Below are positions 47,369-63,943 of a DNA stretch of 64,000 nucleotides, in pieces. The notes under the pieces are model-generated. The model saw only the letters and a list, made by a program, of their open reading frames with translations. It had not been told where the DNA came from and did no database searches. The stretch covers positions 487,606 through 551,605 of the forward strand of contig CALSQF010000006.1 of NCBI GenBank assembly GCA_943788425.1, given 5' to 3'. Every line of letters begins with the position of its first letter. Within the stretch, counting starts at the first letter, position 1. The position numbers and the translations under genes are program-made. Origin of the DNA: an uncultured Planktomarina sp. (GTDB lineage Bacteria; Pseudomonadota; Alphaproteobacteria; Rhodobacterales; Rhodobacteraceae).

Positions 47369-47445
<77 letters not shown>

Positions 47446-47482: not shown

Positions 47483-47814
47483 GCGTTTTAGGACCTATTT
47501 GCATCACAGAATAATTGCCGCGTCCATTGCCGCTTTTAACATTCCCTGACGTCAGTCGAATTTCTGATCGAGGGAACAGCAAACTATAAAGCTTAATCTG
47601 CTGTGAATACTCCCGCACCAATCATAGCGAGAGCCTGTTTCCTGAGCTAAGCATTCCCAAGAGGTGTCGGCCATCTTGTTTCGGGGGTTACTGCGCCCAA
47701 TCCAAACAGATGAAACGTGCCAGGCTCACACCAGCCCCCCCAATCATAGGGCCTCGCGTCTCGGACCACGGGCCTTTAGTATTAGCCGTGTAGTTTCATT
47801 CGGAGGTAATTTTG

Positions 47815-47955
47815 TTCGGCAACTGCATTTCTATTCACGCACCAATTTCAAGCTGAACCGCGCCGCTGCTCTCGCTGAGTGGCGCCAATTATTGAGCGCA
47901 TAAATTCAGGCTGCGCCAGTAATCCGATGCGAGTTCTCATTCGTCTGACAACACC
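47815..47955 (+). mobile_element. Right-end remnant of the IS6-type element
   Basis: About 140 bases match the end of the transposase gene of the intact copy (FYSRTNFKLNRAAALAEWRQLLSA) plus the right terminal repeat TGACAACACC (47946-47955). Upstream similarity fades quickly. It ends 7 bases before the P450 stop codon, marking the left border of the island. No transposase activity is possible. Confidence 0.85.
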
Positions 47956-47962
47956 TTTCATT

Positions 47963-49138
47963 CTAATTTAACAGCACTGGTAGGTTGAGTGGCCCGCGAA
48001 AACCAAAACCGCGCCAGTTAACGGCGCTTGGTTTGGACAAGGACATATTTGGAAAGCGATCGAACAATATGGGCAACATGACCTGCGCTACCGCGCGGCG
48101 TGCAATGTGAGTTCCTTGGCAAAAATGTGGACCATTGCCAAAAGATTGATGTGGGTTCGTATTGCGATAAACGAAAAAGGACTCACCATCGTCAAACAGA
48201 TCCTCATCACGGTTGGCACTGGCCTGAATGGTCATGACCACATCTCCTTTTGGGATGAAACATCCCCTTATTTCGGTATCCTCAACGGCCAACCGCGATG
48301 AGGCAGAAATTGGCGCAACCCATCTAATGCCTTCTTCGAAAGCTTTGTCCCAATCCGCGTTGCGCTTCACCTCTCCCAATTGTTCTGGATTGGAGAGCAG
48401 TCCAAATAAAACGGTATTCAGGGCATCTCGGGGCTCGTTAATTCCGCCGCCAATAGCGATTTTCATATTGGCGTAAATTTGTGTTTTCTCAATTGGATCA
48501 TCTGCGTTGAGCATAACCGACAATGCGGAGTTGTTGGGTTTGGCGCGATGCCGGTCTCGAAGGCTGTCGAAAAGCCGATGCATTTCCTCATTGGCGCGAT
48601 CGGCTCGCTGGAACGGTTCATCCTTCCAGCCGAAATTTCCTGCACCATCAATCAAGGCCTGTGACCAGCGCTGCATTTGATCGTCTGTGGCCGCGTCGAT
48701 CCCAAGCACAATAGCAAGACCGCGGGCGGCGTAGGGGCCGGAGAGCGCAGAAAACAAATCAACCACCTCGCCGCGTGGCAGGCGGGCCACATATTCTTTG
48801 GCAATTTTTTCATATTCCGGAACCCATTCATCACGAATTACCTTGGGTGCGAAAGATGGTGCCATAGCCATACGTTCACGCAGGTGCTCTTGGCCATCTT
48901 TACGCATCAAGGTATGGGCCCAAAAGGCTCGCCTCATTGGTGTATTCGGATCGTTTGAGCTGAAAATTTCTGGGTTGTCTTTCACATATCTGGTGTCTAC
49001 GGCTTTTGTTATAAACGTGCGTCCGGCGTTTTTGACCTGCACAACGGGCGCCTCGCGCCGCAGACGCTTGTATATTGGAAATGGGTTATCATCCAATTGA
49101 GCCAAAGTAATTTCGGTATCTTCGGGCGCTTGTTTCAT
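47963..49138 (-). CDS. Cytochrome P450, possibly an aromatic O-demethylase type
   Basis: A 391-residue soluble P450. The heme motif SFGNGPHFCQGTHIARR holds the Cys ligand. ExxR is EGIR. The I-helix region reads GGGINEPRDALN, lacking the usual acid-Thr pair. The overall text (ITLAQLDDNPFPIYKRLRREAP at the start, GFRGPLNLPV at the end, and the INEP I-helix) reminds me of the guaiacol O-demethylase GcoA (CYP255). That resemblance is from memory. No GcoB-like reductase or ferredoxin is in the window, so its electron donor is unknown. The gene is the last on the minus-strand island. Confidence 0.82.
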   Translation of the reverse strand: MKQAPEDTEITLAQLDDNPFPIYKRLRREAPVVQVKNAGRTFITKAVDTRYVKDNPEIFSSNDPNTPMRRAFWAHTLMRKDGQEHLRERMAMAPSFAPKVIRDEWVPEYEKIAKEYVARLPRGEVVDLFSALSGPYAARGLAIVLGIDAATDDQMQRWSQALIDGAGNFGWKDEPFQRADRANEEMHRLFDSLRDRHRAKPNNSALSVMLNADDPIEKTQIYANMKIAIGGGINEPRDALNTVLFGLLSNPEQLGEVKRNADWDKAFEEGIRWVAPISASSRLAVEDTEIRGCFIPKGDVVMTIQASANRDEDLFDDGESFFVYRNTNPHQSFGNGPHFCQGTHIARRAVAQVMLPILFDRFPNMSLSKPSAVNWRGFGFRGPLNLPVLLN

Positions 49139-49283
49139 GGTGCTTTTTATCCATTCTCTCCGAGTAATCGCATGGCATTTTCCTTGAGTATGAGAGGGCG
49201 CAACGCCTATTTGAAGGGCGCCTCCGCGAAATCTTTGAGCCAGCGGTCAGGGGTAATGTTGGCTCTGAGCCATAGAAACTCCA

Positions 49284-49410
49284 CCTTCACTCACGTCTCA
49301 ATTTCAACCTGAACCGCAACGCTGCTCTCGCTGAGTGGCGTCAATTATTGAGCGCATAGATTCAGGGTGCATCAGCCATCCGATGTGAATTCGCATTCGT
49401 CTGATGCACC
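49284..49410 (+). mobile_element. Second right-end remnant of the IS6-type element
   Basis: About 127 bases resemble the transposase end (NFNLNRNAALAEWRQLLSA) and the right terminal repeat, now TGATGCACC. It lies between the P450 and flotillin genes and probably marks a past insertion. It shares the same inner break point as the other remnants, near CTCACG. Confidence 0.82.
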
Positions 49411-49483
49411 TTCAATAGCCGACAATGTTGAGGCCGACTTTTCTTACAGAGCGTCGAAACGGATCGAAAAAACCACAACCACG

Positions 49484-51010
49484 TCAGTCTGGCTTTTTCT
49501 TACCAAGTGTCTCGTCAAACGAGACGCCCATTTGATCGCCAATCTTTTGCAGCAGAGGATATTGTACCGCCATATCCATGATGGAGTCCATCGCGGTTGT
49601 CACCGGTGATTTTGGCCCAGTTTCGCCACCGCTGCCGCCTGACCCACCAAGCCCTGTCACATGATTGACGTTTATCGAATTGATCTTTTCTGCCGGCTTG
49701 ACCATTTCACTGATGATTTTCGGCATCGCTTCAAGGCGCGCTTTCTCAAGCTCCATTGCGACCAGAGTATCAGAGCGTGAGTTCTCAGCCTCAATATGTG
49801 CGCGGTTTGCATCTGCTTGAGCCAGCTTAACTACTTTTTCAGCTTCTGCTTCTTCGCGTCGTGCAGCGGCCTTGTCTTTGGCTGTCGCTTTATCACTGTC
49901 TGCCATGATTGCCGCGCGCGCAGCGGCAGTATTTGCGTCTGATTTAACAGAGATATCGGCAAGTTTCGCGCGACGTTCCGCTTCGGCCATGGCCCGCACA
50001 GTCGCGAGTGCCTCGGACGCTTTTACAGCTTCTGCACGGGCTGTGTCCGCCTCTGCTTGCGCGCGACTTTCTTCCTGAGACTTCGCGGAAATTGCAATCT
50101 CGCGATCTTGCTCGGCAATAGAGAGCGCTTGCTCCCGCTCTACTTCAGCCGCTTGGATTGAGCGTTCCATGTCAATCTTGGCTTCTGTCGCCGAGCGCTC
50201 GCTCTCGGCTTTACGTTTCGCAACTTCTGCGATCTGAGCGGCGGCGAGTGTTTCGATCTCTTGTTGCTGCGCGATCTCTGCACGGCGTTCTTCTAGATCA
50301 ATCTCAAGACGTTGACGCGAGGCTTGCATAGACGCGCGACGCACCGACACCTCGCTGTCTGCATCAATCTCTGCACGCTCCTTTTTGGATTTTGCAATGA
50401 CCTCTGCCAGTTTGCGCATTCCTACCGCGTTAAATGCATTGTTCTCGTCCAAAGATGAAAATGGTGTTTGATCGAGACCGGTCAAGGACACGCTATCGAG
50501 TTGCAGTCCGTAGCGCGCAAGCGTGTCTTTCAACCCTTCACGCACTTCACCAACAAACTGCGCGCGGTTCTCATGAAGCTCATCCATCGACATACGTGCC
50601 GCAACACAGCGCAAAGCATCGACCAGCATACCGTCGATCAAATTGCGCAGCTCATCTCGTTGAAACGTGCGCTTGCCAAGGGTTTGCGCCGCACGTGTGA
50701 TTGAATCCTCGTCAGGGATGACAGAGACGTAGAATTCCGCGCCAACATCGACACGTAAGCGATCTTGCGTGATCAAGGATGAATCTCCGCGTCGATCCAC
50801 ATCGAGGCGCAGAGTTTGCATATTCACGCGACTGATTTCGTGGAAATAGGGGATCGCAAGCACGCCGCCATCGATCACGACGCGACGCCCCCCTACGCCA
50901 GTCCGCAAAAGCGACACTTCGTTGTTGCCCCGCTCATACCACCAAGCAGCAAGTGCGATGATGATTGCCAAAAGAATGACTATGAGAATGATCCAGCCAA
51001 TGAGCCCCAT
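49484..51010 (-). CDS. Flotillin-like SPFH protein
   Basis: A 508-residue protein with one N-terminal membrane span (WIILIVILLAIIIALAAWW). An SPFH/band-7 domain (about 40-220, with RVNMQTLRLDVDRRGDSSLI and IDGMLVDALRCVAARMS) follows, then a long Ala/Glu/Lys-rich coiled coil with EA-type repeats (about 225-450). A glycine-rich hinge (GLGGSGGSGG) and short tail end it. Flotillins scaffold membrane microdomains. A strong GGGAGGGG site lies upstream of ATG 51010, only 12 bases from the SDR gene. Its placement between catabolic genes is unusual and its role there is unknown. Confidence 0.86.
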   Translation of the reverse strand: MGLIGWIILIVILLAIIIALAAWWYERGNNEVSLLRTGVGGRRVVIDGGVLAIPYFHEISRVNMQTLRLDVDRRGDSSLITQDRLRVDVGAEFYVSVIPDEDSITRAAQTLGKRTFQRDELRNLIDGMLVDALRCVAARMSMDELHENRAQFVGEVREGLKDTLARYGLQLDSVSLTGLDQTPFSSLDENNAFNAVGMRKLAEVIAKSKKERAEIDADSEVSVRRASMQASRQRLEIDLEERRAEIAQQQEIETLAAAQIAEVAKRKAESERSATEAKIDMERSIQAAEVEREQALSIAEQDREIAISAKSQEESRAQAEADTARAEAVKASEALATVRAMAEAERRAKLADISVKSDANTAAARAAIMADSDKATAKDKAAARREEAEAEKVVKLAQADANRAHIEAENSRSDTLVAMELEKARLEAMPKIISEMVKPAEKINSINVNHVTGLGGSGGSGGETGPKSPVTTAMDSIMDMAVQYPLLQKIGDQMGVSFDETLGKKKPD

Positions 51011-51022
51011 CTTTTCCCCTCC

Positions 51023-51811
51023 CTATAAACCGTGCGCGCGGCAGGTCAGATTTGACGCCATGCCACCGTCGGCCTGAATGTTGAAACCTCTGATCCACTG
51101 TGTCATGTCTGATACAAGGAACATAATCACAGGGGCAATATCTTCGGGTGTGCCGGGCCGATCCATCGTGTCACGGTCCTCTGTCGCACGCGCGCCGAGC
51201 GTTTGGATAAAGTCGGCTAGGATTGGCGTATCCACTGGCCCCGGGCTGACCGCGTTCATGCGAATGCCGCGATCGCGCCACGTCCAGCGGTTCTGCATGG
51301 TCCATGTGATCAGCAGCTCTTTGGAAAAGAAGTAGCTGCGACCGCCCTCAGATGACACTTTCCAGCGTTCGATAAACTCATCAAGATTGTGGTAATCCAG
51401 ATGCTCCGCCGCTTTGATCGCATCAACCGCATTCGGCCAGCCATGCCCTGCAAGCGAGGCGACATTCACGATGCTCGCTGCATCGGTTAGTTTCGGAATG
51501 AGTCCATGGGTGAGACGCTTCAGCCCCAGCCAGTTCACCAACAACAATCGATTGGCAGGCTGCGTTGGCGGAAGCCCCGCATTGTTTACCAACCCATCAA
51601 TGTCTTCTGGCAGCACATCAATCAGGGCATCAATGGTGCGCGGATCTGAGAGGTCCGCACGGTAGAACTCATCAACGTGATCGAAGCCCTTATTGATATC
51701 GACGCCCAAAACTTCGGCCCCTTGTTCGGACAGCAGGCGGGCCGTCTCAAGACCGATCCCTGAGGAACTGCCCGTCACCAAAATGCGTTTGCCTTTTACT
51801 ATATCTTTCAT
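51023..51811 (-). CDS. Short-chain dehydrogenase, CalA (coniferyl alcohol dehydrogenase)-like
   Basis: A 262-residue classical SDR. The NAD-binding motif is GSSSGIG, the catalytic Ser lies in VNVASLAGHG, and the Tyr-Lys pair is YFFSK. The text VTGSSSGIGLETARLLSEQGAEVLGVD, DIDGLVNNAG and RMNAVSPGPVDTPIL recalls coniferyl-alcohol dehydrogenase (CalA) and similar enzymes, which oxidise an alcohol to an aldehyde. Substrate is inferred. ATG 51811 lies just after the ALDH stop. TTG 51817 would overlap that stop, and no good ribosome binding site exists, so coupled translation is probable. Confidence 0.85.
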   Translation of the reverse strand: MKDIVKGKRILVTGSSSGIGLETARLLSEQGAEVLGVDINKGFDHVDEFYRADLSDPRTIDALIDVLPEDIDGLVNNAGLPPTQPANRLLLVNWLGLKRLTHGLIPKLTDAASIVNVASLAGHGWPNAVDAIKAAEHLDYHNLDEFIERWKVSSEGGRSYFFSKELLITWTMQNRWTWRDRGIRMNAVSPGPVDTPILADFIQTLGARATEDRDTMDRPGTPEDIAPVIMFLVSDMTQWIRGFNIQADGGMASNLTCRAHGL

Positions 51812-51813
51812 GT

Positions 51814-53280
51814 TCAAAACACCGGAGGATATTGTTTTTGGCCACGATCCAGCGTGATCCAGCGCGTTTCAGAGAAGCTTTCTTGCGACCATCGACCGCC
51901 ATAGCGTCCCAAGCCGCTGGCTTTGGTGCCGCCAAACGGTGCGTGGGCTTCGTCGTTGATAGGTGAGCAGTTGATATGGCACATGCCCGTTTCCAAATGC
52001 TGCGCGATGTCCATGGCGCGGTACTCATCGCGACTGATAATGCCCGCTGACAGACCATATTCCGTGTCGTTATTCATCGCGATCGCTTCGGCGTCGGTCT
52101 TGAACGTGGTGACCACAGCGACAGGGCCAAAGGTCTCATCGCGCCAAATGTCCATGTCGGAGGTGACATCGATAACAATCGTAGGCTCCACAAACTGTCC
52201 ATTGACCCCACCGCCAAGCACGATTTTGGCACCCTTCGCGACGGCATCATCAAGCTGGTGCTTCACGCGCTCCACTTGACGTTCGTTAATCAATGGGCCG
52301 ATCACATTGGCTTTGTCAGCGGTATTGCCCGTTTTCAGTTTAGACGCGCGCGCAACGAAGCCTTTCATAAACTCTTCATAGACCTTTTCTTGCACCAACA
52401 CCTTTTCAACGCTCATGCAGATTTGGCCCTGATGCATGAACGCGCCAAAGCTTGCAGAGGATGTCGCGCGCTCCATGTCTGCGTCTTCAAGGACGATAAG
52501 ACTGTCTTTGCCGCCAAGCTCGATACACGCCTTTTTTAGATGCGCCCCACATTTTGCAGCGATGCGCCGACCCACCGCAGCAGAACCAGTGAAGGCCACT
52601 CCTTTGACCTTAGGGTTATCGACCATCTCATCTCCGACCTCGGCCACATTATCACGCGAACAGGTGATGACGTTGAAAACACCGGGCGGCACGCCGGCTT
52701 CCTCCATGACTTCCGCAAAGAACAAACCGCCCAGGTAAGGCGTATCCTCAGAGGGTTTCAGCACAATCGTGTTACCCATCGCCATCGGCACTGAAAAGGG
52801 GCGCGTCGCCAAAATGCCCGGCATGTTCCAAGGCGTGATGATCGCGATCACGCCCATGGGCGTGCGCACGGCGTTGGAGACCTTGCCATATAGCGAGGGG
52901 AGTACTTCACCAATCGGCGTATAGCACGCGGCGGCGGCAGCTTTGAACATTTCTGGCATGACCTTGGTCTCATAGACCCCTTTGCCATACCATCCGCCAC
53001 CTTCGAACTGGGCAGCAGGGATATAATCACCCGCGCGGCGTTCGATGATCTCTGCGGCTTTAAGCATCAGATCAGCGCGCTCTTGAAACTTCAGCGCAGC
53101 CCAGGCTGGAAAGGCCGCTTGTGCCGCATCAATCGCGCGTTTTGTGTCGGCCCCCGTGGCGTCAGGAATGCGCGCCCAAAGCGCGCCGTCATTTGGGTTA
53201 ATGTCATCAAACTGGCGCGGCGTTTGATGCCACTGACCATCGATATAAATCCCTTTAATCGCGGGGGCGGAGGCGGTCAT
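51814..53280 (-). CDS. NAD(P)+-dependent aldehyde dehydrogenase
   Basis: A 488-residue ALDH. It has the Asn loop ITPWNMPG, the NAD motif FTGSAAVGRRI, the general-base motif ELGGK and the catalytic Cys in GQICMS. The C-terminal EAHAPFGGTKASGLGRYGG is present. It oxidises an aldehyde to a carboxylic acid and may act after the neighbouring alcohol dehydrogenase. The substrate class (aromatic versus aliphatic) cannot be fixed. I start at ATG 53280: the longer start at 53361 would overlap livF, and a GTG at 53289 is the alternative. It sits 10 bases after livF and immediately before the SDR gene, so all three are in one transcript. Confidence 0.9.
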   Translation of the reverse strand: MTASAPAIKGIYIDGQWHQTPRQFDDINPNDGALWARIPDATGADTKRAIDAAQAAFPAWAALKFQERADLMLKAAEIIERRAGDYIPAAQFEGGGWYGKGVYETKVMPEMFKAAAAACYTPIGEVLPSLYGKVSNAVRTPMGVIAIITPWNMPGILATRPFSVPMAMGNTIVLKPSEDTPYLGGLFFAEVMEEAGVPPGVFNVITCSRDNVAEVGDEMVDNPKVKGVAFTGSAAVGRRIAAKCGAHLKKACIELGGKDSLIVLEDADMERATSSASFGAFMHQGQICMSVEKVLVQEKVYEEFMKGFVARASKLKTGNTADKANVIGPLINERQVERVKHQLDDAVAKGAKIVLGGGVNGQFVEPTIVIDVTSDMDIWRDETFGPVAVVTTFKTDAEAIAMNNDTEYGLSAGIISRDEYRAMDIAQHLETGMCHINCSPINDEAHAPFGGTKASGLGRYGGRWSQESFSETRWITLDRGQKQYPPVF

Positions 53281-53290
53281 GTCTAACACA

Positions 53291-54418
53291 TCAATCCCTT
53301 TCGAACTGGCCCGATGGGCGGCGGCGGTAAACCTCGACGCGTGGGCGTTTGTAGACTTCAATGACGGGAGGCGGCGCTGAGGGTTGCTCTGTCACGGCCT
53401 TGGATGGAATGGATGCACGCGGCTCGCGCGGTGCCCGGCGACGGGCGTTCATTGCGGCTTGTTCGATGTCTTTCAATACCACTTCGATCGTGGAACTCGC
53501 CAGTTGACGTGCGGCTGCCATTGTCTCTGGCGCAGAACCTCGCGGTGCTTCTGCAGAGGTCTTTGTCGCCACCGCGACCAGATCATCAATGGAACCGCCA
53601 ATTTGTTGATCCGCACTGCGGCGTGGCGTGGGATTACCAGTCGGCTTGGTTGATTTTGTGACTTCAACAAGAGGAGTGGAGCGCGTCGATGGACTTGCCG
53701 AAGTCTTGCTGCCCACACCGAGATAAGCCCGCTGCACCGCGGGGTCATTGGCCAAGCGCGCAGCCGTATCTTCATGGGTGACTCGGGTGTTTTCCAAAAG
53801 GTATCCACGATCCGCAATTGCGAGACTTTGCTTTGCATTCTGCTCAACCAACAGCACTCCGATGCCAAGGTCTTTCACACGGGTCAGGTTCTGAAACAGC
53901 TCTTTGCACAGTAGCGGCGACAGACCCAAGGAGGGTTCATCCAACATCAAAATCTCAGGCGCAGACATGATCGCGCGGCCAATCGCAACCATTTGCTGTT
54001 CGCCCCCCGACATTGTGCGCGCGATCTGGCCTTGCCGTTCGCGCAGCTTAGGGAATTGCATCAAAACGCGCTCAAGATTTTCGCGTTCCGTTTCGCGTGC
54101 ACCGGCAGAATATGCGCCCAGCAGCAGGTTCTCTTTCACTGTGAGATCACCAAAGATCCCACGACCTTCCGGTACAAGCGCCACGCCTTTTTCGACGATT
54201 GCGTCAGAAGACAGGCCTGTCAGGCTCTCTCCGTTCAACGTCACGTCACCTGAAACCTTGCCCTCACAAATCCCCGAAATCGCGCGTAACAGCGTCGATT
54301 TGCCAGCGCCATTTGCCCCAAGGATAACGACAACTTCGCCCGTGTTCACCTTGATCGATATATCATTCAGCGATGGATGCTGGCCATAGGCCGCAGAGAG
54401 GTTGGTGACTTCAAGCAT
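53291..54418 (-). CDS. livF: LivF-like ABC ATPase with long C-terminal extension
   Basis: A 375-residue ATPase of the branched-chain amino acid/aromatic importer family. Residues about 1-235 form the normal LivF domain: Walker A GANGAGKST, signature MSGGEQQ, Walker B LMLDEPSLGLS and the switch His-free LLVEQNA. The last ~140 residues are an unusual low-complexity tail rich in Ser, Thr, Pro and Arg, ending VEVYRRRPSGQFERD. Normal LivF proteins stop at about 235. ATG 54418 overlaps the livG end; ATG 54424 is possible. The tail's base composition looks like that of the neighbours. Confidence 0.88.
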   Translation of the reverse strand: MLEVTNLSAAYGQHPSLNDISIKVNTGEVVVILGANGAGKSTLLRAISGICEGKVSGDVTLNGESLTGLSSDAIVEKGVALVPEGRGIFGDLTVKENLLLGAYSAGARETERENLERVLMQFPKLRERQGQIARTMSGGEQQMVAIGRAIMSAPEILMLDEPSLGLSPLLCKELFQNLTRVKDLGIGVLLVEQNAKQSLAIADRGYLLENTRVTHEDTAARLANDPAVQRAYLGVGSKTSASPSTRSTPLVEVTKSTKPTGNPTPRRSADQQIGGSIDDLVAVATKTSAEAPRGSAPETMAAARQLASSTIEVVLKDIEQAAMNARRRAPREPRASIPSKAVTEQPSAPPPVIEVYKRPRVEVYRRRPSGQFERD

Positions 54419-55148
54419 CGTCATCCCCCAGATAAGCGCGGATCACGTCTTGGTCAGAGAGCACATCATCGGTTGTGCCGTCGGCGATTTTAGCACCTGA
54501 TGACATGACCACACAGCGATCACACAGCGAGCGGATCGCGTCCATCACATGTTCGACCATCACGATAGTGCGGCCCTCATTGCGCAGGTTGTGGATCAGC
54601 TCAATTCCTGTCTCAAGCTCGGTTGGGTTCAACCCCGCGAGCCATTCATCCAGCAACAAAACCTTGGGTTCGCCAGCTAATGTGCGCGCCAGCTCGACGC
54701 GTTTTTGATCGATGTAGGTGAGCGAGGACACAGGCGCGTGGCTCATCGCGTCCATGCCGACACGCTCCAAAACGCTATGCGCGAAATCTTCGGCTTCCCG
54801 ACCCCAACGGCGTTTGTGGCCGTAAACTGCACCTGCCATAACATTTTCTAAAACGGAAAGACCTGGCAACAAACGCACCAATTGAAACGTGCGCCCCACT
54901 CCTTCGCGGGCGATAATTTGCGGAGCCGCGTCAGAGATCAAACGCCCACGTAGCGAAATCCGACCATCCGTAGGGGCAAAGACCCCTGAGATCATATTGA
55001 TCATCGTCGTCTTGCCAGAGCCGTTAGGCCCAATGATGCCAACCATCTCATGTTCGGCCACATCGAACGACATGTTCGAAACGGCCACCAATCCACCAAA
55101 GCGTTTAGTGATATTTTTGACTGAAAGGACTGCGCCGGCCTGCTTCAT
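54411..55148 (-). CDS. livG: LivG-like ABC ATPase
   Basis: A 245-residue ATPase partner of LivF. Walker A is GPNGSGKTT, Walker B is VLLLDEWLAGLNP and the switch His lies in MVEHVM. The signature region reads SLTYIDQKRVELA where the usual text is LSYGQQRR, so the conserved Gly-Gln is replaced by Ile-Asp. The Walker B Pro is Trp. ATP hydrolysis may then depend mainly on the site that uses LivF's intact signature. It follows livM with a shared A (TAATG) and overlaps livF, so the genes are coupled. Confidence 0.9.
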   Translation of the reverse strand: MKQAGAVLSVKNITKRFGGLVAVSNMSFDVAEHEMVGIIGPNGSGKTTMINMISGVFAPTDGRISLRGRLISDAAPQIIAREGVGRTFQLVRLLPGLSVLENVMAGAVYGHKRRWGREAEDFAHSVLERVGMDAMSHAPVSSLTYIDQKRVELARTLAGEPKVLLLDEWLAGLNPTELETGIELIHNLRNEGRTIVMVEHVMDAIRSLCDRCVVMSSGAKIADGTTDDVLSDQDVIRAYLGDDDA

Positions 55149-56077
55149 TAACGCCCCCTTGCGCGCGCGCGTAGTTGTTCGATCCGTCCGACAAAACCGT
55201 GCGGCAGGAAGTAGACGATCACCAAGAAAGCAACGCCAAGAACCAAGATTGACTGATTAGGGAAGTTTGAATCGACCCAGTTCCAGATCAACAAAAACGG
55301 GATCACGCCAACCACTGGCCCCCAAAGCCGTCCTGAGCCGCCCAAAAGCGCCATGATGACGACGAAGAAACTCAGCTGCGGGGAGAAGACTTGATTGGGT
55401 TCGATGTAGCTCCAACGCGGGGCGATAATAGCTCCGACGATAGCACCGAAAACGCCAGTGGTGGTGAACAGGATTACCTTGGCCATGGCGGTGTTGATGC
55501 CAACATGACGCGCGACGGTTTCATCGCCGCCAATAATACGCAGCGCAAAGCCAAGACGCGAACGGCTGATTATCCATCCCAGCAGGTAGACGCAACCCGC
55601 GGTCACAAGCAGCATCCAATAAAGATGCGCATCGGTGAATTCCGTCAGAACATAAAGGCCGCGCGAGCCGAGGAAATTGTTCTGCACCCAGCTCACCAGA
55701 TTGCGGATCATTTCTGCTAGACCCAGCGTGAAGATAACGAAATAGACCCCTGACAAACGCAGCGTCGCAAGTCCGATCAGCGCGGCAAGCACACCGCCGA
55801 TGACCGCAGAAAGCGCCAGCATCGACCAGAAACTCGCGTCATAATCGCTCATCCCAGAGCCAACGACAAAGCCACCAACCCCGAAGAACGCAGCAGAGGC
55901 GAGCGATATATAATGCGTCGGGCCAGAGAATAGCATCCACGATGTAGCAAGCGCCGTGTACATCATCACATCCACGCCAATCCCAAGCCAATAGCCATTG
56001 GACATCATCGGCCAGAACGCAGCGAGCGCGACAAGCACACCTGCCCAGATAAGCTCTTGCACGGTTGCAGGATTCAT
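55148..56077 (-). CDS. livM: LivM-like ABC permease
   Basis: A 309-residue polytopic permease with about eight to ten membrane spans, paired with LivH. The EAA-like ATPase contact region is RSRLGFALRIIGGDETVARHVGIN. Conserved text FGVGGF and RLSGVYFVIFTLGLAEMIR is typical. It ends in a basic tail (EQLRARARGR). The start overlaps the livH end by four bases (ATGA). The family imports branched-chain amino acids, amides or aromatic acids; the substrate here is inferred from context only. Confidence 0.92.
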   Translation of the reverse strand: MNPATVQELIWAGVLVALAAFWPMMSNGYWLGIGVDVMMYTALATSWMLFSGPTHYISLASAAFFGVGGFVVGSGMSDYDASFWSMLALSAVIGGVLAALIGLATLRLSGVYFVIFTLGLAEMIRNLVSWVQNNFLGSRGLYVLTEFTDAHLYWMLLVTAGCVYLLGWIISRSRLGFALRIIGGDETVARHVGINTAMAKVILFTTTGVFGAIVGAIIAPRWSYIEPNQVFSPQLSFFVVIMALLGGSGRLWGPVVGVIPFLLIWNWVDSNFPNQSILVLGVAFLVIVYFLPHGFVGRIEQLRARARGR

Positions 56078-56940
56078 ACTGCACGTCTCCCGAACAGGCC
56101 TTGGGGGCGGAACAACAGGATGATAACGAAGATGAAATAGGCGGCAGCAAGTGTCAGGCCTGGATCAACCAAAGTGGCGACACCTGTCTCCACAAGGCCA
56201 AGGATGATCGCCGCAACAATCGCGCCGCGAATTTCGCCCACGCCGCCCATGATGACGATGATCAGGGCTTTGAGCGTAAAGACTACACCGATTGAGGCGT
56301 CTAGCGTGATGAAGGTCGAAATCAACGCGCCGCCTACGGCGGTGATGGTGCCGCCCAATGCGAAAGTCAAAGCCGAAACGCGTGGCACGTTGATGCCCAC
56401 AAGACCAGAGGCTTCTGTAGACACAGACACCGCGCGCACTGCAACGCCGGGGCGTGAGTAATGCAGCCAAATATAGAGCGCGGCGGCGATCAGTACCGCG
56501 AGCAAGAAAGCGACGAGGCGGTTCAGCGATGTGGTGGATCCCAAAATGGAGATCGGCTCGCTTAGGTATTTATAAAAGAAGAAGCCGCCCTCAATCGACA
56601 CCATGATGCCGATAAAAATGAACGACATGCCAAAGGTGGCGAGGATACTATCAACCTCAAGCGCGCCTTGCGATTTGGAGCGGCGCACAAGAGGCGTCAG
56701 CAGGAAACGATAGATCAACCAGTTGCCGATAAAAGCGACGGGGATCACAAGAATAACCGTGAGGATCGGACTGATTTGCGCCGTTGTATAAAGCCAAAAC
56801 GCAGCCAAAGCCCCCAAGACCAACACCTCGCCATTGGCGAGGTTCATGATCCGTGCAACGCCGTATTGCAAGTTCAGACCCATCGCGACAAGCGCATAGG
56901 TGCCTGACAAAAGCAGGCCGGAAACGAGTATGTCGAGCAT
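56074..56940 (-). CDS. livH: LivH-like ABC permease
   Basis: A 288-residue permease with about eight membrane spans. Family text includes ILVSGLLLSGTYALVAMGLNLQYGV at the start, RIMNLANGEVLVLGA, and the ATPase contact region RPGVAVRAVSVSTEASGLVGINVPRV. A typical alphaproteobacterial GGVGEIRGAIVAAIILGLVE follows. It lies 53 bases after the substrate-binding protein gene and precedes livM with a four-base overlap. Together the five genes make one complete importer. Confidence 0.92.
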   Translation of the reverse strand: MLDILVSGLLLSGTYALVAMGLNLQYGVARIMNLANGEVLVLGALAAFWLYTTAQISPILTVILVIPVAFIGNWLIYRFLLTPLVRRSKSQGALEVDSILATFGMSFIFIGIMVSIEGGFFFYKYLSEPISILGSTTSLNRLVAFLLAVLIAAALYIWLHYSRPGVAVRAVSVSTEASGLVGINVPRVSALTFALGGTITAVGGALISTFITLDASIGVVFTLKALIIVIMGGVGEIRGAIVAAIILGLVETGVATLVDPGLTLAAAYFIFVIILLFRPQGLFGRRAV

Positions 56941-56993
56941 TAGATCTCCCGAGAGTGGTCGGGCGGGAAAGTCCCCGCCCGTGCCAGTTCTTT

Positions 56994-58187
56994 TTAATCA
57001 GACCAACCGGTTTTTGCGCGCACAGGTACCGCGCCGATCACGTTAGATCCCTTCACACCGCGAAAGACGCCATCTTGCCACTGGCCCACGGACCAGAAGG
57101 TATTGGAGAAGTTGTTGGTAAAGCTCAGCTCGCCCATCACCGTTTCAAACGAGTTGTCCTTGATATACTGAGTGACAACTTCACGATCGAGCGTGGCTGC
57201 GCCAACAATCGCTTGTTCTAGGATCTGCAAAGACGCGTATGTGTTGGCGGATGCCCAATAGTCCGCGACTTTGCCCGTGATATCCATATGTGCTTTGCGG
57301 TAGGCCGCGATCGCTGGATTATCCACATTGGTACCGCCAGCACCCAAGACGTTGTTAATCTTGTTGCCATAAGCGCCTTTGAACGCTGGGAAGCTCGTCG
57401 CAACTGCAGAGTAATAAAGTTTTACGTCGAGGTCTTCGATAATCGCCTGCTCGGCAAGTCCGAAGCTGTCTGGTGGGTAGGACCAAGCAACGAACGCCTT
57501 CGCGCCACTCTCTTTGGCACCCTTCATTACAGGGCTCAAATCTGGTGTGCCCAGAGGGTAAGACTTGTCATAGACAATGTCGAAACCAGCTTCGCCGAAT
57601 AGCTCGCGTGCGCGATCAGCAAGCTCAATACCGAAGGCGTCAGCCACATTGACCATCGCGATTTCGTTACCGATTTCACCAGCGTCACGTTGCTCGATCA
57701 GGATCTCTTTTACACCGTCCACGAAGGCCGTCGTGGTCCCAAGCGTGAAGAACAGGTTTGGATAGCGCGTTGTCAGCTCTTCCATCTTGTCAGTGATCGC
57801 AGAGACCGCAATCATCGGATAGCCGAACTTGCCATAGATCGGCGCGGTCGCGATGTTAAAACCAGTACCATATGGGGCAACCACGAAATCAACTTTGTCC
57901 TGCGTCGCAAGACGCTGCGCCAGTTTGATGTGCTCGCCAGGATTGGTTTTGTCGTCATACTCGATCAATTCGAGCATCTTCATTTCGCCGCCAACGTCCA
58001 GACCGCCGCGTGCATTCACTTCTTCCACCCAAAGGCGCACGTTGGGCCACTGTGTTACGACAGCGCCACCCGCAAGCGGGCCAGTCTTAGGTGCAATCGC
58101 ACCGATCTTGATCATATCCTGAGCAAACAAGGACGTGCCGGCGACAGCTAACGCTGCTGCAAGGCCAAAAAGGCTTCTTCTATACAT
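56994..58187 (-). CDS. Liv-type periplasmic substrate-binding protein
   Basis: A 397-residue secreted protein. MYRRSLFGLAAALAVAGTSLFA is a signal peptide. The mature chain is a two-lobed family-6 receptor (MIKIGAIAPKTGPLAGG, WVEEVNARGGLDVGG, IELIEYDDKTNPGEHIKLAQRL, GTGFNIATAPIYGKFGYP). ATG 58187 is preferred because GGGAG is directly upstream; a longer start at 58223 would place basic residues before the signal. It delivers the substrate to LivHM. Binding specificity cannot be read by eye. The 106-base gap upstream may hold a promoter. Confidence 0.9.
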   Translation of the reverse strand: MYRRSLFGLAAALAVAGTSLFAQDMIKIGAIAPKTGPLAGGAVVTQWPNVRLWVEEVNARGGLDVGGEMKMLELIEYDDKTNPGEHIKLAQRLATQDKVDFVVAPYGTGFNIATAPIYGKFGYPMIAVSAITDKMEELTTRYPNLFFTLGTTTAFVDGVKEILIEQRDAGEIGNEIAMVNVADAFGIELADRARELFGEAGFDIVYDKSYPLGTPDLSPVMKGAKESGAKAFVAWSYPPDSFGLAEQAIIEDLDVKLYYSAVATSFPAFKGAYGNKINNVLGAGGTNVDNPAIAAYRKAHMDITGKVADYWASANTYASLQILEQAIVGAATLDREVVTQYIKDNSFETVMGELSFTNNFSNTFWSVGQWQDGVFRGVKGSNVIGAVPVRAKTGWSD

Positions 58188-58329
58188 AGATTTCTCCCTG
58201 AATCGTTGTGTCAGATGGCCCATTACGATGCCGACTCGTTTGCGGTCGGAGAGCCTTATCTATAAATAGTGCATTGAACCTGTACGTTAAATCAATGCAT
58301 TTGTTAATTGATTTTCGAGTACGCGGATT

Positions 58330-59217
58330 TTACTCTGCTGGTTCTGCCATCTTTGGCGCGACGATAGACTCCTCGTAGGTCAGCTCACCAAGCCCATCTT
58401 CAAAGATGTTACGTTCGGCAATCCATTCCCGCGATTTATCAAAGATTTCACGCGAATAAGGTTCAAACACAATGCGCTCACCAGGTCCGAACAGACGCGT
58501 ATCCATCTGATCTTTGAAGCGCTCTGGGAATTCGTTGCGATAGTAATGCGTGTAAAGCTCTTGGCGCAAATCGATGTCCTTTTGCGCCATACGCAGCGCG
58601 CTGAAATACTTTTCAACATCTTCAAGTTCTGCATCTTCTGAGACCATTGCCGCCATCATGAACGAGGTATCGAGCACTTTGCGATATCCCAATTGCTCCA
58701 TGAAATAGTAAGGCCCGCTGAACAAGCTGACCGCAGGCACAACTCCATCGATCAGGTTCTCCATCCGCTTGAAAAGGAGGCCATCAGCAAAGCTGAGATT
58801 GATCTCGTTATGCGACAAGAACGGCTCAAGGGCTTGGATAGTCGAATAGTGACTGCCCGATTGGAAACCTACTGAAATTGGCACATTTGCGAGATCTTCA
58901 GGCGTTTCGATATCACTGTCATTTGGAACGAAGATCCCACAGGGCGAGACAGAATATGCGTTCGCATATAGCTTGCCATGACCCGACGCAGCCGCGACGT
59001 TGACTGTCCAATGGCACGCTGAACTGACGTCACAAGTACGCCCTTTTTCAAAGGTCTGATACGCTCCAACGCGATCCCCGAGATCGTGGCGATCACCTGT
59101 GGCAGACAGCAATTGATCTTCTAACTCATATGCGAGACCGACCTCAACAAAATAGCCTTTCTCGACAGCAATCCACTCATGCAAGCGCATGTGCGGCGCG
59201 ATAATAAACTTGCTCAT
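58330..59217 (-). CDS. NMT1/THI5-like protein without signal peptide
   Basis: A 295-residue protein of the periplasmic-binding fold. FIIAPHMRLHEWIAVEKGYFVEVGL opens it like NMT1-type receptors. CHWTVNVAAASGHGKL and CGIFVPNDSDIETPEDLANVPISVG follow, then the second lobe. ATG 59217 follows AGAGGG. Upstream in-frame codons from 59331 read as leader, but no Sec signal is seen from either start. It may be a cytoplasmic binder or enzyme of this fold (some decarboxylases share it). It heads the island's minus-strand genes. Confidence 0.75.
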   Translation of the reverse strand: MSKFIIAPHMRLHEWIAVEKGYFVEVGLAYELEDQLLSATGDRHDLGDRVGAYQTFEKGRTCDVSSACHWTVNVAAASGHGKLYANAYSVSPCGIFVPNDSDIETPEDLANVPISVGFQSGSHYSTIQALEPFLSHNEINLSFADGLLFKRMENLIDGVVPAVSLFSGPYYFMEQLGYRKVLDTSFMMAAMVSEDAELEDVEKYFSALRMAQKDIDLRQELYTHYYRNEFPERFKDQMDTRLFGPGERIVFEPYSREIFDKSREWIAERNIFEDGLGELTYEESIVAPKMAEPAE

Positions 59218-59338
59218 AACATCCCTCTCTAGAGTAGCTTTTACGTCATGTTGGCAGTTTTGAGGGAAATAGACCAGCCCTACAACTTTGATATATGTTT
59301 TAAACAAATTCAATAAGCTGGAGGGAAACAAATATGAC

Positions 59339-59503
59339 GGTACTGTCAGATTAAACTCGGTTGAAGTGGGCAGGCGGTTTCGTAGCCTCGCCGTATAACA
59401 AAGCGCTCTCCATTCAGGTCCTTTAAAACGAGCCCTGAGATCATCCGCCTGGCTGTGATGCTGTACGTTCGTTTTCCGCTCTCACTCCGTAATGTTTAAG
59501 ATC
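59339..59503 (+). mobile_element. Left-end remnant of the IS6-type element
   Basis: GGTACTGTCA (59339-59348) and the following ~155 bases match the left end of the intact copy, including the start of the transposase gene to CTCACTCCGTAATG. The match breaks at about 59503, where IS3 sequence begins. This marks the right border of the catabolic island. Confidence 0.88.
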
Positions 59504-59647
59504 TTCTACAGCTTACGAGAAGCACAGATAATCATCGAAGAATGGAGGAAACACTACAACACAAAGAGACCACACAGTGCGTTGGGCTATCGCCCGCCAG
59601 CTCCTGAAACCATCATACCACTGGATCAGAGGCCAATCATGCACTAA
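59504..59647 (+). mobile_element. IS3-family transposase (OrfB) 3' fragment
   Basis: The frame reads SLREAQIIIEEWRKHYNTKRPH then SALGYRPPAPETIIPL to TAA at 59645-59647. This is the classic IS3-family OrfB C-terminus (integrase core tail). It is joined directly to the IS6-type left-end remnant, so one element inserted into, or recombined with, the other. The following 58 bases may be IS3 right-end sequence. Confidence 0.88.
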
Positions 59648-59705
59648 CAATTAACCTGGCCCAGTCAGATGAGGCTGCTCAATGTTGACTAGGGGTGGGG
59701 CATAG

Positions 59706-59841
59706 GTGCTCCACCTTTATTCACGCACTAATTTCAAGCTGAACCGCGCCGCAGCTCTTACTGAGTGGCGCCAATTATTGAGCGCATAGATTCAGGCTGC
59801 GCCAGTAATCCGCTGCGAGTTCTCATTCGTCTGACAGCTGC
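59706..59841 (+). mobile_element. Third right-end remnant of the IS6-type element
   Basis: About 136 bases match the transposase end (NFKLNRAAALTEWRQLLSA) and right terminal repeat (TGACAGC, 59832-59838). It starts at nearly the same inner break (CTCCACC-TTATTCACG) as the other two remnants. Confidence 0.86.
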
Positions 59842-60116
59842 ACTTCTAAAGCTGCTATCATCGTCATCCGGGTCGGGCAAGATAACCGGATTGACAGGTT
59901 GCTCGACTGCAACCAAATCCCTGTTAATCTTTGTTGCAGAGTTTCAAAGCGCTAACTCATGATCATACATCGGCTCATAGGTTTCAGGTGTGTGGAAGCC
60001 CACCAGACGAGACTGCCGCACTGCAACGTCAAAGGTGATGGCTGAGAATTTTGTCACATAAACAGAGAGTTTAAAAAAGGATTCCCGTCTTGATTTTTGG
60101 TTAAGACAGGGACAAC
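59842..60116. other. Gene debris between IS remnants
   Basis: On the minus strand a 37-codon stretch (GTG 60057 to TGA 59944) reads TKFSAITFDVAVRQSRLVGF and then PETYEPMYDHE. In the same frame beyond the stop comes VAVEQPVNPVILPDPDDD, which faintly recalls PIN-domain toxin text. No complete gene is present. I treat it as a cut remnant of unknown origin. Confidence 0.35.
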
Positions 60117-60933
60117 GGTACTGTCAAATTAAACTTGGTTGAAGCGAGCAGGGTGTATTTGTAGCATCCGCAAATGACAAAACACTCCCCATTTAGGTAC
60201 TTTAAAACGAGCCCAGAGATCATCCGCTTGGCTGTGATGCTGTACGTTCGGTTTCCGCTCTCACTCCGTAATGTGGAAGATCTTCTGCACGAACGAGGCA
60301 TTGAGATCAGCCACGAAACAGTTCGGTTTTGGTGGAACAGATTTGGTCCGATGTTTGCTGCTGAGATACGAAGAAACCGGGTCAGTCGGATGCGATCTTA
60401 TTCGAACTGGCAATGGCACCTGGACGAGGTCTTCGTAAAGATCAATGGAGAGACGCATTACCTCTGGCGAGCCGTTGATCACGAAGGTGAGGTGCTTGAA
60501 AGTTATGTTACCAAGCGCCGAGACCGCAAGGCAGCATTGAAATTCCTCAGAAAAGCAATGAAGCGCTACGGCGGACCAGAAGTAGTTGTGACGGACAAAC
60601 TACGTTCCTATGGCGCTGCAATGAAAGTTGTTGGCAACGCGGATCGGCAGGAAACGGGCCGCTGGTGTAACAATAGGGCTGAGAATTCCCACTTGCCGTT
60701 TCGACGACGAGAACGCGCTATGCTCCGCTTCCGACAGATGCGATGTCTGCAAAAGTTCGCTGCAGTCCACTCTTCAGTCCACAACCATTTCAATCAGGAA
60801 CGCCACTTCTACTCACGAGACAATTTCAAGCTCAATCGAACTGCCGCTCTTACTGAGTGGCGCCAACTATTGAGCGCATAGATTCAGGCTGCGCCAGCAA
60901 TCTGATGCGAGTTCTCATTTGTCTGACAGCACC
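60117..60933 (+). mobile_element. Complete IS6-type insertion sequence
   Basis: About 817 bp bounded by terminal inverted repeats GGTACTGTCA (60117-60126) and TGACAGCACC (60924-60933), the latter read GGTGCTGTCA on the other strand. It contains one intact transposase gene. Size matches IS6-type elements. Flanking bases (GGGACAAC and CTCCCCTA) show no 8-bp target duplication, so the ends have probably recombined since insertion. Confidence 0.9.
60174..60881 (+). CDS. IS6-family DDE transposase
   Basis: A 235-residue intact transposase. An N-terminal HTH region (FKTSPEIIRLAVMLYVRFPLSLRNVEDLL) is followed by the DDE core. WHLDEVFVKINGE gives the first Asp, VVTDKLRSY the second and NNRAENSH the Glu. 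A basic FRRRERAMLRFR segment follows. IS6 elements move by cointegrate formation and can fuse and carry neighbouring DNA, which makes the remnant pattern at the island's edges meaningful. No frameshift is seen. Confidence 0.95.
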   Translation: MTKHSPFRYFKTSPEIIRLAVMLYVRFPLSLRNVEDLLHERGIEISHETVRFWWNRFGPMFAAEIRRNRVSRMRSYSNWQWHLDEVFVKINGETHYLWRAVDHEGEVLESYVTKRRDRKAALKFLRKAMKRYGGPEVVVTDKLRSYGAAMKVVGNADRQETGRWCNNRAENSHLPFRRRERAMLRFRQMRCLQKFAAVHSSVHNHFNQERHFYSRDNFKLNRTAALTEWRQLLSA

Positions 60934-60952
60934 CTCCCCTAGGGCCGCACAA

Positions 60953-61831
60953 TCAATCACCGATTGGTTTAGGTCCGGGGTCTTTGGTCAATGGCAACAG
61001 CGATGTTCGGATGCGCCGCAGGTTCTCTTTGACTCGTTCTGGCCGCTTTCTCGCAGCACCGGCGGCCAGGACATCGACAATCGCAATGTAGACAAGACGC
61101 GAGGCTGAGGGTTTGTAAATGTCTTGATCTTCAGGAATATCGATTTGGATTGAAATGTCCGTTAGCAGTGCAAGGTCTGAGCCGGTTTTGGTTAAGCTGA
61201 TCGTAGTTGCGCCATATTGTTTGGCGATTGCAATGCTATCCAAAAGTTCAGCAGGTTGACCACTTGATGAAATTGCGACCAGCACATCACCTTCGATCAG
61301 GGTCGAGGATAGCATGCGCTGGAGATAACCGTCGGCATGCGCCTCTGCGGGAATACCAAGCCGAAAAAACCTGTTGGCCCCCTCACGAGCAACATTGGCA
61401 GAGCCCCCGCCAACACCAAGAAAGGCTATGCGGCGGGCATCGGCAAGTTTGTCTGTTGCTTGTTCAATCGCCTCACTATCCAGTTGCCCACGAACCAGCG
61501 TCAGAGTGTCGACCAATGTACTGAACACCTGTGTTACCAATTGCCCGGTTTCAGATTGATCTCCGCTTGCCCCCCCAAGGTATTGCAAACTGACCGCCAC
61601 GTTTTGCGCAAGTCTGATTTGAAAGTCGCGGAACCCTTCGCAGCCGATTGTTGTACAGAATCGATTCACTGTCGCGACAGAAACCTCGGTTGCCGCTGCA
61701 ATCTCGTGCTGCGAAAGAAAAGAGATTCCCTCAAGGTTTGCCAGCACAAAATCAGCAACCAGTTGCTCGCGCTTGGGGAAAGCTCCGTTCAGAGTGCGCA
61801 CATGCGAGATGAGATCGATAACTTCGAGCAT
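60953..61831 (-). CDS. MurR/RpiR-family transcriptional regulator
   Basis: A 292-residue regulator. Residues about 1-80 are an RpiR-type HTH (FVLANLEGISFLSQHEIAAATEVSVATVNRFCTTIGCEGFRDFQ). Residues about 125-260 are a SIS domain that binds phosphosugars or similar (GVGGGSANVAREGANRFFRLG, ISSSGQPAELLDSIAIAK). It lies immediately beside ridA on the minus strand, and both diverge from a family-5 substrate-binding gene. The two TGTAA-N5-TTACA repeats between are probable operators for this protein. A 16-base gap separates it from ridA. Confidence 0.9.
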   Translation of the reverse strand: MLEVIDLISHVRTLNGAFPKREQLVADFVLANLEGISFLSQHEIAAATEVSVATVNRFCTTIGCEGFRDFQIRLAQNVAVSLQYLGGASGDQSETGQLVTQVFSTLVDTLTLVRGQLDSEAIEQATDKLADARRIAFLGVGGGSANVAREGANRFFRLGIPAEAHADGYLQRMLSSTLIEGDVLVAISSSGQPAELLDSIAIAKQYGATTISLTKTGSDLALLTDISIQIDIPEDQDIYKPSASRLVYIAIVDVLAAGAARKRPERVKENLRRIRTSLLPLTKDPGPKPIGD

Positions 61832-61847
61832 TGTCTTGGTGTGCCTC

Positions 61848-62246
61848 TCATACGGGCTTATATGCCACTACATCCATTTCAACCTTGGCGTCTACCATTA
61901 GCGCACTTTGCACTGTGGCCCGCGCGGGTGGATGTGCGGCGAAATATTTAGCAAAGACCGAATTGAAACTGGTGAAATCCCGTGGATCGTCCAGCCAAAC
62001 GCCGACTTGTACCACATGCGCCAAGCTGCAATCTGCAAGTTTTAGAACGGCGATGATATTGGCTATAACAGCTTCTGACTGTGCGATGATCCCCCCTGTG
62101 ACAACTTCGCCGTCAACTGTCGGGACTTGCCCGGATACATAGATAAAATCCCCCGCACGCACGGCTTTAGAAAAGGGGCGCGGCGTGCCGCCAGCAGCAG
62201 CGTCTGCGCCGTCAAAGCGGATGATTTTTTGTGGAGTAGTTTGCAT
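61848..62246 (-). CDS. RidA-family protein
   Basis: A 132-residue YjgF/RidA protein. RidA hydrolyses reactive enamine/imine intermediates from PLP enzymes to keto acids and ammonia. Conserved text is VSGQVPTVDG and HPPARATVQ, the latter with the active-site Arg. Some members of the family act in catabolic operons with other chemistry. It pairs with RpiR and diverges from a peptide-type ABC gene, so it may belong to amino-compound catabolism. Confidence 0.88.
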   Translation of the reverse strand: MQTTPQKIIRFDGADAAAGGTPRPFSKAVRAGDFIYVSGQVPTVDGEVVTGGIIAQSEAVIANIIAVLKLADCSLAHVVQVGVWLDDPRDFTSFNSVFAKYFAAHPPARATVQSALMVDAKVEMDVVAYKPV

Positions 62247-62259
62247 ATTGGTAACCTTT

Positions 62260-62276
62260 ATGTAAGTTATTTACAT
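62260..62276. promoter_or_regulatory. Operator-like repeat 1, ATGTAA-N5-TTACAT
   Basis: Perfect 6-base arms around GTTAT, 14 bases upstream of the ridA start. With a matching site at 62333-62347 it suggests two dimers of one regulator, most likely the adjacent RpiR protein. Inference from position and symmetry. Confidence 0.65.
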
Positions 62277-62332
62277 TTTATACTCGGTTTAGCTGACTTT
62301 TCCAAATAATATTTGACTATTATTGGCTAAAT

Positions 62333-62347: not shown

Positions 62348-62391
62348 TATAAATAAAATTAACTTGAAACATCATAACGAAGGAGATTGAG

Positions 62392-63933: not shown

Positions 63934-63943
63934 GGTTCTTCCC

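What the first reader, a model, noticed from the sequence alone, without database searches (positions are those of the whole stretch)
47815..60933. IS-bordered aromatic-type catabolic island with importer, SDR, ALDH and P450
Seen: genes run on one strand from 59217 to 47963 (NMT1-like protein, five Liv-type importer genes, ALDH, SDR, flotillin, P450). Both edges carry remnants of one IS6-type element, and a further remnant interrupts the run. Known: SDR, ALDH and P450 families oxidise alcohols, aldehydes and aryl ethers. Inferred: the unit imports and oxidises a small lignin-type aromatic compound, because the SDR recalls CalA and the P450 recalls GcoA. The combination with a flotillin and a signal-less NMT1 protein is not one I recognise.
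Basis: partly seen in the sequence, partly recalled or inferred. Interest (0 to 1): 0.78.

Follow-up and report, generated by a model that had tools for sequence, protein, structure and literature searches.

The report
Mobile aromatic-uptake operon with captured P450
A marine bacterium carries a piece of mobile DNA in which an import-and-oxidise operon, probably for plant-type aromatic compounds and paired with a membrane-scaffold protein (flotillin), has been joined by an insertion sequence to a P450 gene taken from another aromatic pathway.

Summary
In detail: ten genes on one strand, cut up by IS6-family remnants. The "one unit" reading holds only in part; the island is a chimera. Part 1 is an operon (SBP-LivH-M-G-F-ALDH-SDR-flotillin) present with flotillin in 14 of 17 other family genomes that carry the SDR. 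The NMT1-like gene is linked to it in two further genomes of the genus. Part 2 is the P450: in 56 stretches around P450 relatives no operon gene occurs at 35% identity or more. Beside the P450, cut by an IS end, lies a scrap of the amidohydrolase gene that precedes the P450 in 12 of 14 loci compared. The island is 99.5% identical over 11.5 kb to one in IMCC1909, at another locus, while rpoB/rpoC is 93% identical: recent transfer. Aromatic function is likely; the substrate is unknown. New: LivF ends in a ~130-residue tail whose terminal motif occurs in exactly the 15 of 295 family genomes where the flotillin operon was found, suggesting that importer and flotillin are coupled.

The parts
47809..47955 (+). 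IS6-family right-end remnant R1, left border of the island
   Evidence: 85% over 130 bp to the complete copy
47963..49138 (-). cytochrome P450, 391 aa, I-helix GGGINEPRDA, haem motif FGNGPHFCQG
49147..49257 (-). pseudogene scrap: last ~37 codons of the amidohydrolase that precedes the P450 in other roseobacters, with an in-frame stop
   Evidence: tblastx 73-79% over 33-37 residues to 12 of 14 P450 loci compared
49265..49413 (+). IS6-family right-end remnant R2, joint between the P450 piece and the operon
   Evidence: also present in IMCC1909
49484..51010 (-). flotillin (Band_7 + Flot)
51023..51817 (-). SDR of the coniferyl-alcohol dehydrogenase family, TGSSSGIG and SYFFSK motifs
51814..53361 (-). 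aldehyde dehydrogenase, aromatic-aldehyde type by nearest solved relatives; true start probably near 53280
53291..54424 (-). LivF ATPase with ~130-aa C-terminal extension
53294..53407 (-). LivF tail motif ...PPVIEVYKRPRVEVYRRRPSGQFERD, signature of the flotillin operon
54411..55148 (-). LivG ATPase
55148..56077 (-). LivM permease
56074..56940 (-). LivH permease
56994..58223 (-). substrate-binding protein (Peripla_BP_6); start probably the ATG near 58187
58330..59217 (-). NMT1-like protein without an evident signal peptide (by eye)
59337..59841 (+). internally deleted IS6-family copy (left end 59337-59510, right end 59695-59841), right border of the island
60115..60933 (+). complete IS6-family element, transposase 60174-60881

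Best explanation
The island is a recently transferred, IS6-bordered chimera in a Planktomarina-type roseobacter. Its core is a roseobacter operon that imports a small compound through a Liv-type ABC transporter and oxidises it twice in the cytosol: a primary alcohol to the aldehyde (SDR), then to the acid (ALDH). The importer's ATPase carries a dedicated C-terminal tail, and this operon type brings its own flotillin; I infer that the tail docks the importer on a flotillin patch together with the two dehydrogenases, so that a membrane-permeant, toxic aldehyde is made and consumed at the entry point. The most likely substrate class is an aryl or arylpropanoid alcohol/aldehyde. A P450 from an aromatic-acid cluster was later cut out by IS6 and fused behind the flotillin; it would hydroxylate or O-demethylate the resulting aromatic acid on the way to protocatechuate, which this genome can probably cleave with LigAB. 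Shown: gene content, chimera, IS joints, transfer, tail/flotillin correlation, presence of ring-cleavage gene families. Inferred: substrate class, order of steps, docking, P450 reaction.
For: Operon with flotillin in 14 of 17 other SDR-bearing genomes among 295 of the family (three of the 14 cut by stretch or contig ends), and in three stretches from two other families of the class. P450 free of the operon in all 56 stretches; amidohydrolase scrap plus IS end at the joint. 99.5% over 11,458 bp to IMCC1909 at another locus against 93% for rpoB/rpoC. SDR family cut-off passed; ALDH nearest to aromatic aldehyde dehydrogenases. P450 neighbours: CoA synthetase of the PRK12582 type (671 bits, below its 777 cut-off), enoyl-CoA hydratase, PobA, PcaHG, or PIG-L/RraA/PrpF/amidohydrolase with LigB nearby. 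Own genome: LigA, LigB, GFO/IDH/MocA, amidohydrolase, PrpF, RraA, PIG-L together. Tail motif in 15 of 295 genomes, exactly the operon-bearing ones.
Against: The substrate-binding protein's model matches aromatic-acid and amino-acid binders about equally well, so the import substrate is open. 10 of 14 operon genomes have no LigB relative at 74% or more; the same-genus genome G045 gave no LigB candidate at all, although its operon lies beside PrpF-RraA-PIG-L. PcaHG was not searched across genomes, and the own genome (93% complete) has no PF00775 match. The P450 has no reductase on the island. The tail could serve the ALDH or SDR rather than the flotillin, since these usually travel together. Co-occurrence tests ignore phylogeny.
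Confidence: 0.65

Rival explanations
1. One functional pathway: importer, SDR, ALDH and P450 act in sequence on one lignin-type monomer, and IS6 merely gathered genes that already worked together when unlinked.
For: P450 and operon co-occur in 6 of 14 operon genomes (1.8 expected, p 0.004), and the close P450s in 5 (0.5 expected, p 4e-5). G201 holds NMT1-like gene, operon and P450 on three contigs. In G261 a diverged SDR and a diverged P450 lie 4.8 kb apart with a Tn3-type transposase and a resolvase gene between them.
Against: 8 of 14 operon genomes lack the P450, and 31 of 37 other P450 genomes lack the operon. Neither part needs the other, and the tests ignore phylogeny.
Confidence: 0.3
2. 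The operon handles a non-aromatic alcohol or aldehyde (steroid, terpenoid or amino-acid derived); only the P450 is aromatic.
For: The SDR's best solved relative is a 3-alpha-hydroxysteroid dehydrogenase (73 bits). The SBP matches amino-acid binders. G045 carries the operon without a LigB candidate.
Against: SDR over the coniferyl-alcohol dehydrogenase cut-off; ALDH nearest to aromatic aldehyde dehydrogenases. A related SDR (53-54%) in G261 lies on the same stretch as an aromatic-ring hydroxylase gene and a DmpG-type aldolase gene, and one (52%) on a Rhizobium plasmid between genes annotated 4-hydroxyacetophenone monooxygenase and salicylaldehyde dehydrogenase.
Confidence: 0.25
3. The island is decaying baggage: IS-shuffled genes without a joint role.
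For: Remnant IS ends at both borders and at the inner joint, a pseudogene scrap, and the AraC/second-ALDH head of several other operons missing.
Against: All ten ORFs are open, with catalytic motifs kept in SDR, ALDH and P450; a 99.5% identical island sits at another locus of another species.
Confidence: 0.1

Closest known systems
CalA-type coniferyl-alcohol dehydrogenase (NCBIfam NF009092)
   Same: SDR passes the family cut-off; NAD-binding and YxxxK motifs
   Different: subfamily-level model; no activity known; here inside a Liv/flotillin operon
GcoA/AgcA/SyoA (CYP255A) aryl O-demethylases
   Same: P450 is a relative; an E-P in the I-helix in place of the usual acid-alcohol pair (pair recalled, alignment); aromatic gene neighbourhoods
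   Different: 31% identity to a GcoA-type chain (6yct), closer to PDB 6g71 at 38%; no GcoB-type partner on the island
Aromatic-acid Liv-type importers (Rhodopseudomonas palustris binding proteins, PDB 4evs, 4ey3, 4f06)
   Same: same ABC type; SBP fold match
   Different: fold does not separate aromatic from amino-acid binders; LivF tail and flotillin are not, to my knowledge, part of those systems
IS26/IS6 pseudo-compound transposons (recalled)
   Same: directly oriented IS6-family ends around a passenger segment
   Different: passenger is catabolic; most copies are remnants; target duplications not shown
Bacterial flotillin (FloT/YuaG)
   Same: Band_7 and Flot domains over Pfam cut-offs
   Different: 65 bits against a 700-bit FloT equivalog cut-off; dedicated to one catabolic operon type

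Membership tests
NF009092 coniferyl-alcohol dehydrogenase family | score above curated cut-off | tested here: met
   281 vs 242 bits
NF009092 coniferyl-alcohol dehydrogenase family | oxidises coniferyl alcohol | not testable with these tools
   needs enzyme assay
CYP255A (GcoA) O-demethylase | family-level identity (about 40%, threshold recalled) | tested here: not met
   30.6% over 395 columns to the GcoA-type chain 6yct
CYP255A (GcoA) O-demethylase | partner reductase gene next to the P450 | tested here: not met
   none among the island's genes
Aromatic aldehyde dehydrogenase | catalytic Cys and Glu motifs | tested here: met
   GQICMS and ELGGK
Aromatic aldehyde dehydrogenase | closest characterised relatives aromatic | tested here: inconclusive
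   top solved relatives include salicylaldehyde/vanillin/benzaldehyde enzymes; no NCBIfam cut-off reached
Flotillin | Band_7 and Flot domains | tested here: met
Liv-type (HAAT) importer | SBP, two permeases, two ATPases in one operon | tested here: met
   no equivalog cut-off reached, so substrate open
IS6 family element | DDE_Tnp_IS240 transposase and short inverted ends | tested here: met
   for the complete copy
IS6 family element | 8-bp target duplication (recalled) | not tested
   borders are remnants
NMT1/THI5-like family | Pfam gathering score | tested here: not met
   no match for the window protein; best 0.019 for a relative
Protocatechuate 4,5-cleavage pathway in the same genome | LigA, LigB and lower-pathway families in one cluster | tested here: met
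   G000 contig 3; family level only, pathway roles recalled

The most novel reading that the evidence does not exclude
A flotillin-scaffolded uptake-and-oxidation assembly: the Liv ATPase has evolved a disordered tail ending in a conserved motif (IEVYRRPRVEVYRRR) that docks the importer onto an operon-encoded flotillin with the SDR and ALDH, so that reactive aldehydes are handed on at the membrane. This would be a dedicated catabolic role for a bacterial flotillin, with a short tail as its address tag.
Probability: 0.3. Interest if true: 0.8.

Novelty: new variant of a known kind. Interest (0 to 1): 0.52.

Why it matters
What bacterial flotillins do is still poorly understood (recalled). A flotillin locked into one catabolic operon type, whose importer ATPase carries a matching tail, gives a compact system in which scaffold, client and function can be tested. 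The chimera also shows, with a pseudogene scrap at the joint, how IS6 elements assemble new catabolic islands in marine bacteria. The literature searches made here (open-licence PubMed Central only) listed no paper on such an operon: all matching papers were seen as search listings (9 of 9; 4 of 4; 2 of 2), but only 10 of 200 and 8 of 39. Novelty is thus not proved.

Tried and rejected
Structure of the NMT1-like protein: AlphaFold2 with four sequences gave mean pLDDT 39, not used. The idea that it is a cytosolic PBP-fold enzyme such as a decarboxylase (recalled parallel) stayed untested. SBP model (pLDDT 71) and fold search: aromatic and amino-acid binders interleave, rejected as evidence for substrate. 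Plasmid search for the SDR: 3416 records, best 57%; only two hits opened, one without annotation. Plasmid search for the NMT1-like protein: 12 records, 25-33% identity. Naming 6g71 and looking for its paper: nothing found. The SyoA paper was not held. Empty-site comparison: the right flank (60934-62400) matched only the own genome and fragments of one other of 20 genus genomes, so no empty site could be shown; the left flank was not searched. A first, longest-ORF gene calling mis-chose antisense frames and was replaced. A paper on aromatic aldehyde dehydrogenases (PMC5353671, passages seen) was not used; the listings gave nothing on this locus.

Counts to read with care: the 56 P450 stretches include at least two loci twice (L017 = L135 and L032 = L140, by equal contig length and position), and many end at contig ends. 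One search used 24 of the 51 loci, plus L097. One search aligned 14 of 17 flotillin-operon stretches of the family plus the window; for the three left out (L085, L092, L095) the tail rests. The PRK12582 match is below its curated cut-off.
Full report
Observation. Domain and family scans agree with the names, except that the NMT1-like protein has no match at the usual cut-offs. IS6-family pieces lie at 47809-47955, 49265-49413, 59337-59841 (internally deleted) and 60115-60933 (complete), all in one orientation.

Where it is. The genome is a 2.54-Mb draft in 19 contigs. A same-genus complete genome, G045, has one contig of 3,288,122 bases, which by recall fits Planktomarina temperata RCA23. I infer that the host is a Planktomarina-type roseobacter.

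Two parts. I searched one draw of 295 family genomes with single proteins. The SDR is in 18 at E 1e-60 or better. Of the 17 other than our own, 14 have it in one operon with flotillin and ALDH and, as far as the stretches reach, LivF, LivG, LivM, LivH and SBP; three of these (L084, L092, L095) are cut by stretch or contig ends. The remaining three genomes (52-56% SDR identity) have no flotillin gene in the stretch. Several operons have in addition a second ALDH and a divergent AraC-type regulator at the SBP end (Pfam for one of them), which our island lacks. The P450 is in 38 of 295 at E 1e-120 or better. In 50 loci fetched by P450 (IMCC1909 aside) and six more from operon-bearing genomes, no operon gene was found at 35% identity or more within the stretches. 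The exception worth telling is G261, where a P450 of 56% identity lies 4.8 kb from an SDR of 53-54% identity, with a resolvase and a Tn3-type transposase gene between them: a second, independent joining of such genes by a mobile element.

The joint. Between P450 and flotillin lies the IS end at 49265-49413, and between that end and the P450 start lies a stretch of 33-37 residues 73-79% identical to the C-terminus of the amidohydrolase that directly precedes the P450 in 12 of 14 loci compared, Tritonibacter, Yoonia and Loktanella among them, here with a stop in frame (amidohydrolase by Pfam in L018 and L010). The two without it, L023 and L055, have a different protein end there. So the P450 came from such a cluster, was cut by the IS, and was joined to the operon. 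These clusters hold a PRK12582-type CoA synthetase, enoyl-CoA hydratase, acyl-CoA dehydrogenase and TRAP importer, and in some loci PobA and PcaHG (families tested in L018, the others by similarity to it). Of the 56 stretches, 20 have the amidohydrolase, 15 the CoA synthetase, 6 PobA and 4 PcaH; the more distant P450s (about 61-66%) mostly have a LysR regulator and a DctP gene instead. In HTCC2083 (L023) and one Planktotalea MAG (L055) the P450 follows PIG-L, RraA and PrpF; in L023 these are followed by another amidohydrolase next to the P450, with LigB and GFO/IDH/MocA genes nearby. Tritonibacter horizontis O3.65, which has the first type of cluster (L010), is reported to grow on 4-hydroxybenzoate, protocatechuate, ferulic acid and vanillin (PMC5064897, passages seen).

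Transfer. Window 47958-59415 matches IMCC1909 at 99.5% over 11,458 bp, inner IS end included, while both borders lead into different DNA; the right flank has no match anywhere in that genome. Over 5,972 bp of rpoB/rpoC (identified by Pfam) the two genomes are 93% identical. The whole chimera therefore moved recently. In 20 genomes of the genus the SDR is in six, own included.

NMT1-like gene. It is in 3 of 295 family genomes, own included, so it is no core member. But in G298 and G300, same genus, it lies directly behind flotillin, the other end from ours. G045 has the operon without it; G312's contig ends too early to tell. Three aligned relatives are 76, 88 and 81% identical to ours, and none of the four starts with an evident signal peptide (by eye).

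Aromatic or not. For: SDR family cut-off, ALDH relatives, P450 neighbourhoods, and the own genome's cluster of LigA, LigB, a GFO/IDH/MocA dehydrogenase, an amidohydrolase, PrpF, RraA and PIG-L, the families of the protocatechuate 4,5-cleavage route (pathway roles recalled). Against or neutral: SBP fold search undecided; LigB relatives at 74% or more in only 4 of 14 operon genomes (0.95 expected, p 0.01) and no LigB candidate in G045; no intradiol dioxygenase family in the own genome. Co-occurrence of operon and P450 is above chance: 6 of 14 against 1.8, p 0.004; for P450s of 68% identity or more, 5 against 0.5, p 4e-5. These tests treat genomes as independent, and the 68% cut was chosen after seeing the table.

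P450 chemistry. The sequence is 38% identical to PDB 6g71 and 31% to the GcoA-type chain 6yct. Its I-helix reads GGGINEPRDA in ours and in 50 of 51 loci; the fragment L059 does not cover it. 6yct and PDB 8u09 have QEPGH there. By recall, the usual acid-alcohol pair is missing in both groups, and one CYP255A member, SyoA, is described as a peroxygenase (title of its paper in the reference list seen; paper itself not held). A ferredoxin/reductase pair of the one type tested stands beside the P450 in 2 of 56 stretches and in L097; other reductase types were not sought. Electron supply by peroxide or by a shared reductase remains open.

The LivF tail. LivF is 377 aa instead of about 240. In 15 aligned sequences the extension has a variable linker and a terminal motif close to PPVIEVYRRPRVEVYRRRPSGxFER. 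Searching the last 38 residues in the 295 genomes gave 15 genomes, one match each, and they are exactly the 15 (own included) with the flotillin-type operon. In three flotillin-operon stretches from two other families the tail is present with a diverged motif (such as IEVWKKEPDVKIYRR). Of five related loci with Liv genes and without a visible flotillin, all have a LivF of 231-239 aa counted from the first matched residue; L187 is cut at the contig end, so four are clear, and of these only L188 is a close relative (LivF 58%). The tail thus goes with flotillin; whether it binds it is not shown.

Verdict. The flotillin, and in this genus the NMT1-like gene, belong with the operon; the P450 is a capture. 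The surprise is the strict pairing of a LivF tail with an operon-borne flotillin.

Noticed in passing
window 60940-64000; G000 contig 13:~3950-7110 and contig 4:~420700-424000: The segment right of the complete IS6 copy (RpiR-type regulator, L-PSP/RidA family protein, SBP_bac_5 protein; Pfam) occurs three times in the genome, about 98-100% identical over some 3 kb (7.1 kb between the contig 13 and contig 4 copies), each next to an IS6 end: IS6-linked segment duplication.
   Followed up: partly
L134 (G000 contig 3:4000-23900): The LigA/LigB ring-cleavage cluster of this genome lies near a phage-type integrase gene, and its LigB is 91-92% identical to that of two other genera while G045 of the same genus has no candidate: probably acquired as well.
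   Followed up: partly
window 47369-47445: A tRNA-Met gene lies 364 bp from the left IS remnant, a possible integration hot spot.
   Followed up: no
L025 (Chromatiales bacterium ex Bugula neritina AB1): The P450 (69%) and relatives of many genes of the roseobacter aromatic-acid cluster (38-92%) occur in a record named as a gammaproteobacterial symbiont: transfer across classes or binning error.
   Followed up: no
L086 (G045): The flotillin operon lies beside PrpF, RraA and PIG-L genes although no LigB candidate was found in that genome.
   Followed up: partly
L097 (G261 contig 29:85000-104900): A diverged SDR and a diverged P450 with its ferredoxin/reductase pair lie on either side of a Tn3-type transposon, near aromatic-ring hydroxylase and DmpG-type aldolase genes.
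   Followed up: partly
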